DNA of 37,855 bases from the NCBI GenBank assembly GCA_963169585.1, contig CAUJDU010000014.1:1-37855 (forward strand), read 5' to 3'. Positions 20,732 through 27,916 of this stretch are shown in pieces; position 1 is the stretch's first letter, and each line of letters starts with the position of its first letter. Origin of the DNA: Actinomycetota bacterium (GTDB lineage Bacteria > Actinomycetota > Acidimicrobiia > IMCC26256 > JAGPDB01). The notes under the pieces were generated by a model, which ran no database searches, was not told the origin of the DNA, and saw only the letters and a list, made by a program, of their open reading frames with translations. Position numbers and translations under genes: made by a program.

Positions 20732-20745
20732 ACAACACACCAAGC

Positions 20746-20791
20746 GTATGGTTGTAAACAGCCATTTCACCGAACTTAATCGGCCCAACGC
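20746..20791 (+). repeat. 46-nt element, copy A
   Basis: The left arm GTATGGTTGTAAAC (14 nt) is followed by a 13-nt variable centre and a right arm AACTTAATCGGCCCAACGC. It shares arms and total length with copies B and C while the centre differs. The two bases before it (GC) extend partial pairing between the ends. It starts 15 nt after tRNA-Ser(GGA). Confidence 0.75.
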
Positions 20792-20804
20792 ACAAACGGA
20801 GTGG

Positions 20805-21125
20805 TTATTTCTTCTTGCGTAAAGGCTTCTTATCGATCAAAACATCTTGTTGCCACTTACTTGGCTTTTTATCTGTCCTATGTATACAGCCAACCCAACA
20901 ACATGGTCGTTTTTGTCCATCAAGCAATTCTTCAACTGTCCGATCAATTCGCCTAGCACGAGTTTTTTCTTGTTTGGCATCTTCTACCCAACAAATAAAT
21001 TCATTTCTTGCTATATCTGAAATTGCTTCCCAAAGACCGGTAATTTTACTCGAAGCCGTTAACGCCTTTATCAAATCCTCTGGTAATTCGTGGACTAATC
21101 CTCCAGAAATCTTTGCTTTACCCAT
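20805..21125 (-). CDS. YdeI/OmdA-family protein (bacteriocin-protection / OmpD-associated domain)
   Basis: A 106-residue protein. 'VHELPEDLIKALTASSKITGLWEAISDIARNEF' and 'CWVEDAKQEKTRARRIDRTVEELLDG' follow the OmdA pattern (LP.DL..AL...W..L....R.E.I.WI..AK..ETR.RRI). This is the single-domain short form, without the N-terminal DUF1801 or DUF1905 part often seen. The C-terminus is Cys- and Lys-rich ('PCCWVGCIHRTDKK'), with a possible metal-binding look. The family has a poorly defined role in peptide or antibiotic tolerance. The gene is bracketed by inverted 46-nt elements A and B and looks like an accessory insertion behind the tRNA. A long antisense open frame on the other strand is a shadow. 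Confidence 0.78.
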   Translation of the reverse strand: MGKAKISGGLVHELPEDLIKALTASSKITGLWEAISDIARNEFICWVEDAKQEKTRARRIDRTVEELLDGQKRPCCWVGCIHRTDKKPSKWQQDVLIDKKPLRKKK

Positions 21126-21144
21126 GAAAACAGTTTAACAAGCC

Positions 21145-21190
21145 GCGTTGGGCCGATTAAGCTTGGCTTTTCGAAGGTTTACGACCAAAC
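21145..21190 (-). repeat. 46-nt element, copy B (inverted)
   Basis: Read on the minus strand: GTTTGGTCGTAAAC, a 12-nt centre (CTTCGAAAAGCC), then AAGCTTAATCGGCCCAACGC. With the two preceding bases, GCGTTTGGTCG can pair with the terminal CGGCCCAACGC at 10 of 11 positions (one G-U), so this copy makes the best hairpin. It lies 20 nt upstream of the ydeI-like start and faces copy C across 40 nt. Confidence 0.78.
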
Positions 21191-21230
21191 GCTTTCCTGG
21201 ATTCTCGCAACTAGACCGAAGATAACAGGT

Positions 21231-21276
21231 GTATGGTCGTAAACCCACAGATTTTCAAGCATAATCGGCCCAACGC
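21231..21276 (+). repeat. 46-nt element, copy C
   Basis: The left arm GTATGGTCGTAAAC, a 12-nt centre (CCACAGATTTTC) and a right arm AAGCATAATCGGCCCAACGC give the same total length as A and B. Its last base is the first base of a 19-bp tandem repeat. Confidence 0.78.
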
Positions 21277-21330
21277 GAGTTGAGGGGGCTACCACGAGTT
21301 GAGGGGGTGACCACGAGTTGGGGTACGGGT
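21276..21330 (+). repeat. 19-bp tandem repeat, about 2.9 units
   Basis: Units begin at 21276, 21295 and 21314 with exact 19-nt spacing: CGAGTTGAGGGGGCTACCA, CGAGTTGAGGGGGTGACCA, then a diverged CGAGTTGGGGTACGGGT. It is G-rich, unlike the AT-rich surroundings, and joins directly to the end of 46-nt element C. Confidence 0.8.
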
Positions 21331-24474: not shown

Positions 24475-25238
24475 CGAATATCCACTAAGTCTGGTTTAAC
24501 TTTGCGTCCCCAATACCATAATATTGTTTTTATATATCCATATTCATTTACACGCCTTGTTGACCCATACACAATGACATCACGTGCAAAGTGTGCTTGA
24601 TGTTTCTCAATGGTTTTACATACTTTAGCGTGTAAAACATTGTCTTCGTCAGTGTCGCGAATACTTGAACGAGGGAAACCTTCCACGAGTATATATAAAT
24701 TGCTTTCGATAGCCATATTTAATCCGGGTACTAAAAACATCGGATAGTTATTTCCTTTTTCTCGATACACAAAGCGCATTATTTTCTCAGAGAATCGATA
24801 AAAAGAAGGAATAAAAATAGAATCCCATCTAGAAAAAAATGGCTCATCACTTCTAGGTTTAATCCGCCCACCAATAATTAAAGCACCTTGTTCAAAATGA
24901 TGTTTTAAGGCACTAATCCATTCTGGTGTGGGAATTGAATCCGCATCGGTCCTCGCAATATGAGTTGCCCCATGCTCGATTGCATAACGAAAACCCGTAT
25001 CTACCGCAGCTCCTGTTCCTTGCTGAGTTTCTTCAATAACCTTAATTGACATATCTGGATTATTCTTTGAAAACTCATCAATAATCTCTCTTGAACCATC
25101 TGTTGAATTGTTATCGACGAGAATAATTGAAAAGTTTTTATCGGTTTGTCTGCATAAACCATTCAACGTATCCTTAATGAGTTCTTCCTCGTTAAAAAAC
25201 GCTACAACTACCCACAAATCTAATTGCATATGAGCCAT
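24471..25238 (-). CDS. Glycosyltransferase family 2
   Basis: A 255-residue GT-A fold enzyme. 'VVAFFNEEELIKDTLNGL' and 'SIILVDNNSTDGSREII' form the nucleotide-sugar binding part, 'HIARTDADSIPTPEW' holds the DxD metal motif (D-A-D), and 'EGFPRSSIRDTDED' is near the acceptor-site acidic residues. There is no membrane helix; it is probably peripheral to the membrane. Donor and acceptor cannot be read. It is a single gene convergent with tadA (4-nt overlap), and its upstream side faces tRNA-Ser(CGA). An ATG nine bases inside the longest frame is an alternative start. Confidence 0.88.
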   Translation of the reverse strand: MAHMQLDLWVVVAFFNEEELIKDTLNGLCRQTDKNFSIILVDNNSTDGSREIIDEFSKNNPDMSIKVIEETQQGTGAAVDTGFRYAIEHGATHIARTDADSIPTPEWISALKHHFEQGALIIGGRIKPRSDEPFFSRWDSIFIPSFYRFSEKIMRFVYREKGNNYPMFLVPGLNMAIESNLYILVEGFPRSSIRDTDEDNVLHAKVCKTIEKHQAHFARDVIVYGSTRRVNEYGYIKTILWYWGRKVKPDLVDIR

Positions 25239-25266
25239 CGAATGTACTACAAACCTTCCACGTATA

Positions 25267-25297
25267 TTGGTATATAGACAATTGAACTAACTAAAAT
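25267..25297 (+). promoter_or_regulatory. Putative promoter of tRNA-Ser(CGA)
   Basis: TTGGTA (25267-25272) and TAAAAT (25292-25297) with a 19-nt spacer lie just before the tRNA, giving a start around 25304. The spacer is long, so this is tentative. Confidence 0.4.
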
Positions 25298-25307
25298 GGG
25301 GAGATCT

Positions 25308-25395
25308 GGAGGGGTGCGAGAGCGGCCGAATCGGATAGTCTCGAAAACTATTGTGGGGCAACCCACCCAGGGTTCAAATCCCTGTCCCTCCGCCA
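25308..25395 (+). tRNA. tRNA-Ser(CGA), CCA encoded
   Basis: The acceptor GGAGGGG pairs with TCCCTCC (one G-U), discriminator G, encoded CCA (25393-25395). The anticodon stem ATAGT/ACTAT holds loop CTCGAAA, anticodon CGA, reading UCG. The long variable arm TGTGGGGCAACCCAC and T-loop GGTTCAAATCC are class II features. Its last 17 bases begin the 44-nt tandem repeat described separately. Confidence 0.95.
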
Positions 25396-25510
25396 ACGAT
25401 AAACCCATAGGGTATTACAAACTCCCTGTCGCTGTGCCACCAATAACCCCTTAGGGTATTACAAACTCCCTGTCGCTGCGCCAATGATAAACATGTGTAT
25501 CATTACAAGC
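25379..25510 (+). repeat. Three 44-nt tandem units, the first containing the tRNA-Ser 3' end
   Basis: Units start at 25379, 25423 and 25467, exactly 44 nt apart. Each has a 17-nt tRNA-tail-like part (TCCCTGTCCCTCCGCCA in the tRNA, TCCCTGTCGCTGTGCCA and TCCCTGTCGCTGCGCCA in the copies) and a 27-nt part with a small hairpin (for example ACCCCTTAGGGT). Units 1 and 2 match at 37 of 44 positions; unit 3 differs mainly in the hairpin, which is replaced by another self-complementary sequence (ATGATA...TGTATCAT). Confidence 0.9.
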
Positions 25511-25545
25511 GCTATTTAGATCGTTCAGGCAATCGTTTAGAAATA

Positions 25546-25878
25546 CTACTTTTGCCCTTCCGAGCGTTTTATCTCATGGCGAGCAACGGCACTGCGGAAA
25601 ATATTCGAAACAAAACCAGCCAAAATTCCAACACCACATAAAAGGTAAAAAATCGTAAAGAGCTTTCCTGCATCAGACGTAGGAACAAAATCACCATAGC
25701 CAACTGTCAGCAAACTCACCGTAGAAAAATACAATGCATCAATCCAGCGCATATCTTCAACAAAATGGTAGACCGTAGTACCTAGCGCAAGATAAAAAAC
25801 TGTTAAAATCAATATTGGGCGAAATCTTCGTATTATAAGTTCGGCTTCCCCAGGATTAAAAAAACGGTTCTTTGACAT
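25546..25878 (-). CDS. Two-helix potassium channel protein (Ion_trans_2)
   Basis: A 110-residue protein. The first membrane helix (about 20-40) is followed by a pore helix and the selectivity filter 'TVGYGD' (58-63) in 'STVSLLTVGYGDFVP', then a second helix (73-92) and a short basic tail. This is a minimal KcsA-like pore that should form a tetramer in the inner membrane. There is no cytosolic RCK or cyclic-nucleotide domain, so gating is unknown; it might be a partner for a separate RCK protein. It is complete and stands alone. Confidence 0.9.
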   Translation of the reverse strand: MSKNRFFNPGEAELIIRRFRPILILTVFYLALGTTVYHFVEDMRWIDALYFSTVSLLTVGYGDFVPTSDAGKLFTIFYLLCGVGILAGFVSNIFRSAVARHEIKRSEGQK

Positions 25879-26569: not shown

Positions 26570-27916
26570 CTATCGATCACCAAAGGAAACACCCTGGCTA
26601 TCTACTATATTCACGGCTTTAACCCCAAGCTCGTCTAATAGCTTAACTCTAGAGTTAAGCATCTTAACTAACTGAGATTTATTATGGATATCAAAACCAA
26701 TCCTGTCCACATCTAAGACCGCTTCTTTTATAGCCCCTGAAACTTCTGATGTGATTTGCGCAACCCTTTCAGGACTAATACCAAGACGTTCAGCAAATGC
26801 TAAGAACTTTTTAGTCGAAATATTTTCTACATTACCTTCAACCGAAAGTGCCATCCTTTTGTCGTTATACACATAGGTGCTGAGAATATCGTAATGTGGT
26901 GCAATCTCAATTTCATCAGTGTCAGGATTTTTCCAGATACTTAAATTCTTTGCATGCAAATCTCCATTTCCAATACTGAACGAGTATATATAAGCTCTGA
27001 AAAGTTCTTCTGCACAACGTCTAGGATCATCAACTGCATCCATTACAGCACGACAAAGTCGCTCATAAGAACCAGAGTATTTTTCATCTGGTGAACGCCC
27101 CAACAGCTGACACCCATCCTCAACATATATCCGTTTCATTTCCCCATCAACATTTCGGCGGTCGAACCTTTCGACTAGTAAACAACTTTCACCAGTTGGA
27201 TCACTTATCAACATTTGTTGTGAAGTTCTCAAACCAGCTCGTTGGGCAAAACCCATAAAAAATGATTCATTTTCAACTATCTTTTTATAACTTGCTTCAT
27301 TGAGCTTAAAGATAACCAATGGTAAAATTTTTGCCTGAAAAGAATGGCCAGACTGCGATTTCTTGACCATTTCAACGATACGTGAAACTTTGCTTTGAAA
27401 GCCCGGTACCGATTGATCGTCAAAACCTGGAGAATTCACGTCAGATGCCATATCTAACATTTCAGCAAAAGTTAAGCTACCTAAAGCATTGGACTCCACA
27501 TCAACTTGAGAAATTAAATCTATATGGTTTCTTCTAGGGATAATCCTCGTATTACCAATAACTTCTGCACCCATAACACGAAAGAGCTCAAACTCATCAG
27601 ATACGGAAATCCCGAGTGAACTTGCAAGTGCATCACGACGCTTACCTTCAGGAAGTTGATTCGAAAAAAATGGGGGTAGCTCATCTAACTTCCCGGAATA
27701 TGTTGCATCAAGATCCTTCATCGAATGAGAAATCCATAAGCCCTTAGTCTTTGCAGTTTGATTATAAGTAAATGTAATTTCTGTTGCGCTCTTTACAAGT
27801 GCGCCAACTTGAACACCATCTAAAAATACAGCAAGAACATTGTTGTTCCCAATACGTTGTTGCGCACGAACAGCAGGATGATTAAACGAGCCGTAAAGCC
27901 CACCATCTAAAGACAT
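26570..27916 (-). CDS. hipA: HipA-family serine/threonine kinase toxin (no HipB neighbour)
   Basis: A 448-residue protein. The N-terminal HipA domain has 'LPPFFSNQLPEGKRRDAL' (80-97). 'QSVPGFQSKVS' (168-178) corresponds to the SVAGAQEK loop of E. coli HipA, with S169 at the autophosphorylated serine. K204 is the probable ATP lysine, 'LLVERFDRR' and 'EDGCQLLG' are conserved, the catalytic loop is 'GNGDLHAKNLSIW' (D319, N324), and 'APHYDILSTY' has the metal Asp D343. All kinase residues are intact. E. coli HipA phosphorylates GltX and causes persistence. No HTH antitoxin is found upstream (the next gene is DUF4190) or downstream. A palindrome overlaps its promoter. Confidence 0.9.
   Translation of the reverse strand: MSLDGGLYGSFNHPAVRAQQRIGNNNVLAVFLDGVQVGALVKSATEITFTYNQTAKTKGLWISHSMKDLDATYSGKLDELPPFFSNQLPEGKRRDALASSLGISVSDEFELFRVMGAEVIGNTRIIPRRNHIDLISQVDVESNALGSLTFAEMLDMASDVNSPGFDDQSVPGFQSKVSRIVEMVKKSQSGHSFQAKILPLVIFKLNEASYKKIVENESFFMGFAQRAGLRTSQQMLISDPTGESCLLVERFDRRNVDGEMKRIYVEDGCQLLGRSPDEKYSGSYERLCRAVMDAVDDPRRCAEELFRAYIYSFSIGNGDLHAKNLSIWKNPDTDEIEIAPHYDILSTYVYNDKRMALSVEGNVENISTKKFLAFAERLGISPERVAQITSEVSGAIKEAVLDVDRIGFDIHNKSQLVKMLNSRVKLLDELGVKAVNIVDSQGVSFGDR

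What the first reader, a model, noticed from the sequence alone, without database searches (positions are those of the whole stretch)
25379..25510. Three 44-nt tandem units seeded by the 3' end of tRNA-Ser(CGA)
The last 17 nt of the tRNA (25379-25395) plus 27 nt downstream recur twice at exact 44-nt spacing. The copies keep TCCCTGTC and GCCA but differ at the acceptor-stem positions (CCTCC to GCTGT and GCTGC), so they could not form this tRNA's acceptor. Units 1 and 2 are 37/44 identical. In unit 3 the hairpin part has changed sequence but is still self-complementary, which hints at selection on structure rather than simple decay. Possible explanations: relics of serial site-specific integration at a tRNA attachment site, slippage duplication of a tRNA 3' processing signal, or repeated decoy substrates for tRNA 3' maturation.
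Basis: partly seen in the sequence, partly recalled or inferred. Interest (0 to 1): 0.68.

Follow-up and report, generated by a model that had tools for sequence, protein, structure and literature searches.

The report
Tandem copies of a tRNA tail
Just after a serine tRNA gene, the last piece of that gene has been copied twice in a row, as is known at one E. coli tyrosine tRNA locus; in this bacterial genus the same thing has happened at about one tRNA gene in seven, so some local process keeps making and losing such copies.

Summary
Three 44-nt units start in the 3' end of tRNA-Ser(CGA) and fill most of a 150-nt intergenic gap; units 1 and 2 match at 37 of 44 positions. The array is not unique to this locus. 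In the window's genome and two same-genus genomes, 15 of 105 tRNA genes have a copy of their own 3' tail within 160 nt downstream, against 1 of 164 control tRNAs from six related genera (Fisher p 4e-6). Copies range from perfect 3' two-thirds of a tRNA to 10-nt remnants, and some form arrays of 2 to 4 units. I checked E. coli tyrV/rttR directly: same layout, 19-nt tRNA end repeated at a 178-nt period. Best explanation: repeated local partial duplication of tRNA genes by replication slippage or template switching, followed by decay and copy-number change. Site-specific integration is disfavoured: no integrase in the window, variable duplication edges, and the real tRNA-linked integrases sit at tRNA-Met genes without tail copies. 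Selection on the hairpins is not shown. One loose end is a spacer motif found only in this array and in the tRNA-Pro(GGG) copy of a sister species. Transcription, processing and function were not testable.

The parts
25308..25395 (+). tRNA-Ser(CGA), intact, GCCA end encoded; its last 17 nt are the first part of unit 1
   Evidence: ARAGORN; 97% identical to the tRNA in the two same-genus genomes
25379..25422 (+). unit 1: real tRNA 3' tail plus 27-nt spacer with a small hairpin (25403-25413, ACCC-ATA-GGGT)
25423..25466 (+). unit 2: degenerate tail copy (TCCCTGTCGCTGTGCCA) plus spacer with hairpin (25447-25457)
25467..25510 (+). unit 3: degenerate tail copy (TCCCTGTCGCTGCGCCA) plus a diverged spacer with a 7-bp AT-rich stem (25483-25489 with 25498-25504)
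   Evidence: the spacer-2 to tail-3 stretch aligns with gaps to the tRNA from the variable arm onward
25396..25545 (.). intergenic gap between the tRNA (+) and a convergent ion-channel gene (-); the array fills 25396-25510 of it
   Evidence: ORF list; Pfam Ion_trans_2; no terminator-like site on the + strand
25546..25878 (-). convergent neighbour gene, 110-aa ion-channel protein (PF07885)

Best explanation
The array is a local partial duplication of the tRNA-Ser(CGA) gene. A stretch from the variable arm or T-loop to just past the CCA end was copied downstream, by polymerase slippage or template switching at the stem-loops of the tRNA and its trailer. The spacer+tail unit was then duplicated once more after it had begun to diverge: tails 2 and 3 share changes that the tRNA lacks, and spacers 1 and 2 are the most alike. 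The copies are not tRNAs. They sit in the 3' trailer, probably transcribed with it, and are decaying. Shown: the array, its order of similarity, the same pattern at many tRNAs of the genus, and the same layout at E. coli tyrV. Inferred: the slippage or template-switch step, transcription, and absence of a dedicated function.
For: Three units in phase with the tRNA end. The genus has 15 of 105 tRNAs with a tail copy against 1 of 164 controls; tails swapped between tRNAs reach the same threshold in 22 of 17185 trials. Copies range from near-perfect 3' two-thirds of a tRNA with altered loops (Thr-GGT, Phe, Tyr, Val) to short tails, which fits continual birth and decay. Duplication edges vary at both ends. 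Spacers hold inverted pieces of the neighbouring tRNA more than shuffled spacers do (Fisher combined p 1.6e-7); with other tRNAs of the same genome as control this weakens to p 0.017 for inverted and 0.001 for direct pieces. E. coli tyrV has the same design, with its 19-nt tail repeated exactly at +159, +337 and +515.
Against: The rate is far higher than in related genera, and slippage alone does not explain why. For Ser(CGA) itself the test for extra tRNA-derived spacer sequence is only marginal (direct rank p 0.061, inverted 0.33). A spacer motif shared with tRNA-Pro(GGG) of G001 is not expected from independent slippage, unless it reflects a shared T-arm plus chance. Arrays at the same tRNA in two species (Glu-CTC in G001 and G002, Leu-TAG in G000 and G002) could mean long retention.
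Confidence: 0.6

Rival explanations
1. Selected trailer RNA: the tail copies and hairpins do something for the cell, for example as alternative 3'-processing sites, RNase decoys or a small RNA like E. coli rttR, and are kept by selection.
For: GCCA and the T-stem 3' strand are kept in all three units. Arrays occur at the same tRNA in two species (Glu-CTC, Leu-TAG). The same layout at E. coli tyrV overlaps the annotated small RNA rttR. A spacer motif recurs in tRNA-Pro(GGG) of G001.
Against: Folding is no better than shuffles. Most tRNAs in the genus lack copies. G002 has none at the same tRNA. The gradient of identity towards the 3' end is expected from variable duplication starts and from detecting arrays by their tails.
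Confidence: 0.2
2. Relics of serial site-specific integration: each tail copy is an att remnant left when small elements integrated at the tRNA 3' end and were lost.
For: tRNA 3' ends are common integration sites and integration leaves partial tRNA copies (PMC9897764, PMC4383910). Copies often begin near the T-loop or anticodon loop, regions known as crossover sites. Two tyrosine integrases in this genome lie just downstream of tRNA-Met genes.
Against: No integrase in the window. Spacers are 25-100 nt, too short for an element. Units inside several arrays are near-identical repeats. Duplication edges vary. The integrase-bearing tRNA-Met loci show no tail array. No viral contig carries the unit junction, and phage hits cover the tRNA only.
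Confidence: 0.13
3. A tiny mobile repeat, about 27 nt with the consensus CCCNNNGGGTATYACAAACTYCC, inserts at tRNA tails and duplicates the target tail.
For: The motif is found without mismatch only in this array and in the tRNA-Pro(GGG) tail copy of G001 among 395 genomes of the class. Another repeat family (CTCGCGGTCGCTCCTCC...) also often sits just after tRNAs in G000 and G001.
Against: Part of the similarity comes from the common T-arm; the Ser-Pro score does not stand out in the all-against-all list of spacers. Only three occurrences. The other arrays have different spacers.
Confidence: 0.05
4. Assembly artefact of a draft genome.
For: The genome is a draft of 147 contigs, and contigs in this genus often stop at tRNA 3' ends.
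Against: The units differ from one another, so a mis-joined single copy cannot give them; the array is only 132 nt; similar arrays lie inside long contigs of G002.
Confidence: 0.02

Closest known systems
E. coli tyrTV tail repeats / rttR (178-bp repeats that hold the last 19 nt of tRNA-Tyr)
   Same: Tail of the tRNA repeated in tandem directly downstream, in phase, with spacers that contain an inverted piece of the tail; verified on MG1655 sequence.
   Different: Unit 178 nt against 44 nt; exact tails against degenerate ones; E. coli has an annotated small RNA and ORF there; here the pattern recurs at many different tRNAs of one genus.
tRNA fragments left by integrative elements (Islander-type att direct repeats; PMC4383910, PMC9897764)
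   Same: A partial 3' copy of a tRNA near the intact gene, often starting near the T-loop or anticodon loop.
   Different: In those cases the fragment flanks an element of kilobases with an integrase; here the spacer is tens of bases, repeated and without an integrase.
Rare tail duplications at tRNA-Ser in other bacteria (this study: Granulicella, a Verrucomicrobia MAG, Acidimicrobium, a gammaproteobacterial MAG, an actinomycete MAG, a Coriobacteriaceae MAG)
   Same: tRNA-Ser followed by a second copy of its tail after 10-40 nt of spacer (for the Verrucomicrobia MAG only the 3' end of the tRNA lies in the fetched stretch).
   Different: Single copies found by one strict pattern, 6 stretches in the whole genome collection.

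Membership tests
tyrT-type tandem tRNA-tail repeats | the tRNA's own 3' end is repeated directly downstream, in phase with the gene | tested here: met
   E. coli reference checked
tyrT-type tandem tRNA-tail repeats | repeat region is transcribed with the tRNA and yields a stable small RNA (as annotated for rttR) | not testable with these tools
   no RNA data; no Rfam match at the array at gathering thresholds
tyrT-type tandem tRNA-tail repeats | the E. coli repeat itself: 178-nt unit with an exact 19-nt tail | tested here: not met
   unit is 44 nt; tails 2 and 3 match the tRNA's last 18 nt at 14 and 15 positions (sequences). So the same kind of structure, not the same repeat family
site-specific integration (att) remnant | integrase gene or element between the copies or adjacent to the tRNA | tested here: not met
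   no PF00589 match on the window's contig; five matches in the genome, all elsewhere
site-specific integration (att) remnant | constant crossover block shared by the sites | tested here: not met
   left and right edges of the copies vary between tRNAs
intrinsic terminator array | G+C-rich stem followed by a run of T | tested here: not met
   no + strand terminator-like site in 25200-25700

The most novel reading that the evidence does not exclude
This genus has an active, genus-specific process that keeps seeding tandem tail copies behind tRNA genes (15 of 105 against 1 of 164), either through an unknown recombinase or template-switch pathway aimed at tRNA 3' ends or because the copies are useful trailer RNAs, with a spacer motif that has spread between Ser and Pro tRNAs.
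Probability: 0.15. Interest if true: 0.75.

Novelty: new variant of a known kind. Interest (0 to 1): 0.45.

Why it matters
One such array has long been known in E. coli and treated as a curiosity. A genus in which about one tRNA in seven carries a fresh or decaying tail copy turns it into a countable process: how partial tRNA genes are born next to intact ones, how they decay, and whether their RNA does anything. It also warns that a partial tRNA next to an intact one is not always the mark of an integrated element.

Tried and rejected
Exact scan of viral contigs for the unit junction: nothing. Phage records: tRNA part only. Pattern search for Ser(CGA) tail copies in G001 and G002: no extra copies; in G001 the contig ends inside the tRNA's last bases. 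Rfam: only the SRP RNA upstream is listed at gathering thresholds. A class-wide search for the spacer motif gave six 2-mismatch hits, none close behind a tRNA 3' end, near the two reversed-pattern control hits, so treated as chance. Selection on hairpins tested by shuffles and not supported. Literature searches for repeated tRNA tails in bacteria found no survey in the open library; what I say of the E. coli repeats beyond the sequence itself is from memory. The organism could not be named; an actinobacterial order is likely from gene content and relatives, but that is inference.

Full report
What was checked. The window lies on contig C14 of a 1.57-Mb draft genome (G000, 94.9% complete). tRNA-Ser(CGA) is at 25308-25395. 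From 25379 three 44-nt units follow each other without gap. Units 1 and 2 share 37 of 44 letters, units 1 and 3 share 32, units 2 and 3 share 30, and the next 44 nt are unrelated (12 of 44). No other adjacent repeat in the window comes near this at these unit lengths, and Markov sequences of the same length reach at most 66%. The array fills most of the 150-nt gap between the tRNA and a convergent ion-channel gene that ends at 25546.

History of the array. Tails 2 and 3 share changes that the tRNA lacks (CTCCCTGTCGCTG against ATCCCTGTCCCTC), while spacers 1 and 2 are the most similar spacers. The simplest reading is two steps: one duplication of the tRNA end, divergence, then a second duplication of spacer plus tail. 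The stretch from spacer 2 to tail 3 also aligns with gaps to the tRNA from the variable arm on (AACCCACCCAGGGTTCAAATCCCTGTC against AACCCCTTAGGGTATTACAAACTCCCTGTC), so the small hairpin may itself be a worn variable arm and T-arm. The specific test for this at Ser is only marginal (rank p 0.061).

Hairpins. Unit 3 has a perfect 7-bp AT-rich stem, which 0.8% of shuffles also have, but its energy is ordinary (57 of 200 shuffles as good), and so are those of units 1 and 2 and of the whole trailer. There is no terminator-like site on the + strand. Selection on structure is not shown.

The pattern is genus-wide. I fetched the tRNAs found by Rfam in the genome and in its only two same-genus relatives held and compared each tRNA's last 18 nt with the 160 nt downstream, other tRNAs masked. 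Fifteen of 105 reach 14 of 18 matches; swapped tails do so in 22 of 17185 trials; 1 of 164 tRNAs from six other genera of the order and class does so (Fisher p 4e-6). The tRNAs are Val-GAC, Leu-TAG and Ser-CGA in G000; Thr-GGT, Thr-TGT, Phe, Tyr, Glu-CTC, Leu-CAA, Pro-GGG and weakly Arg-ACG in G001; Arg-ACG, Glu-CTC, Ala-TGC and Trp in G002. Tyr, Leu-TAG and Arg-TCT of G002 are further cases with shorter tails. Several are arrays: Arg-ACG 4.4 units of 73 nt, Glu-CTC 3.3 of 70 nt, Trp 2.3 of 59 nt, Arg-TCT 2.2 of 67 nt.

Anatomy of the copies. Identity to the tRNA is near 100% in the last few bases and falls to about one half or less beyond 20 nt. Some copies include the tRNA 3' two-thirds with altered D- and anticodon loops (Thr-GGT, Phe, Tyr, Val). 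Spacers contain inverted pieces of the same tRNA, up to 18 nt at Leu-TAG and 14 nt at Arg-ACG. Against shuffled spacers the excess is strong (p 1.6e-7). Against other tRNAs of the same genome, a stricter control, it is modest (direct 0.001, inverted 0.017). Inverted-then-direct pieces are what template switching in stem-loops leaves behind; this step is inference.

Six tRNAs of G001 lie within 16 nt of a contig end on their 3' side (Ser-CGA, Glu-TTC, Arg-CCT, Leu-TAG, Lys-CTT, Leu-AAG), and the Tyr contig stops inside its array. Assembly breaks at tRNA 3' ends fit repeats there, but the missing sequence was not seen.

Known precedent, checked on sequence. In E. coli K-12 the 19-nt end of tRNA-Tyr (tyrV) recurs exactly at +159, +337 and +515, a period of 178 nt, over the annotated small RNA rttR. 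A strict pattern scan of the genome collection found six more tail duplications at tRNA-Ser in unrelated bacteria. The phenomenon is therefore known in kind and rare elsewhere; its frequency in this genus is what is unusual.

Rivals. Integration relics are disfavoured: no integrase on this contig, integrases that do sit by tRNAs are at tRNA-Met genes without tail arrays, spacers are tens of bases, and duplication edges vary. A functional trailer RNA cannot be excluded. A shared spacer motif in the Ser(CGA) array and in the Pro(GGG) copy of G001, absent without mismatch from all the other genomes in a sample of 395 of the class, is unexplained; its similarity score does not stand out among spacer pairs, so it carries little weight alone.

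Verdict. A real, decaying, two-step partial duplication of a tRNA gene, of the E. coli tyrT kind, and one case of a process that is unusually common in this genus.

Noticed in passing
20732-21290: Behind tRNA-Ser(GGA): a YdeI/OmdA-like gene (PF13376, 20805-21125, minus) flanked by attC-like palindromes (GCGTTGGGCCGATTA ... TAATCGGCCCAACGC). The same palindrome follows tRNA-Lys(TTT) (L085), and other palindromes follow tRNA-Met (L086) and tRNA-Tyr (L094). No integron integrase was looked for specifically.
   Followed up: partly
L104, L124, L126, L128, L129, L114, L116: A G+C-rich repeat (CTCGCGGTCGCTCCTCCGATCGCTCCCTGTGA, units 65-70 nt with a variable hairpin) often starts about 6-10 nt after tRNA 3' ends and forms tandem arrays; in G000 all four matches are beside tRNAs, in G001 some are elsewhere, in G002 none.
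   Followed up: partly
L200 and L203 (G000 C45 and C40): Two related tyrosine integrases just downstream of two tRNA-Met(CAT) genes, likely integrative elements.
   Followed up: partly
21276-21320: A 19-nt tandem repeat (CGAGTTGAGGGGGCGACCA, 2.4 copies) directly after the palindrome behind tRNA-Ser(GGA).
   Followed up: no
L132 (G001, tRNA-Pro GGG): The spacer of its tail copy shares 24 of 30 letters with the spacer of unit 2 of the Ser(CGA) array.
   Followed up: partly
26570-27916: A 448-aa gene that by eye looks like a HipA-type kinase, with a smaller gene beside it; not tested.
   Followed up: no
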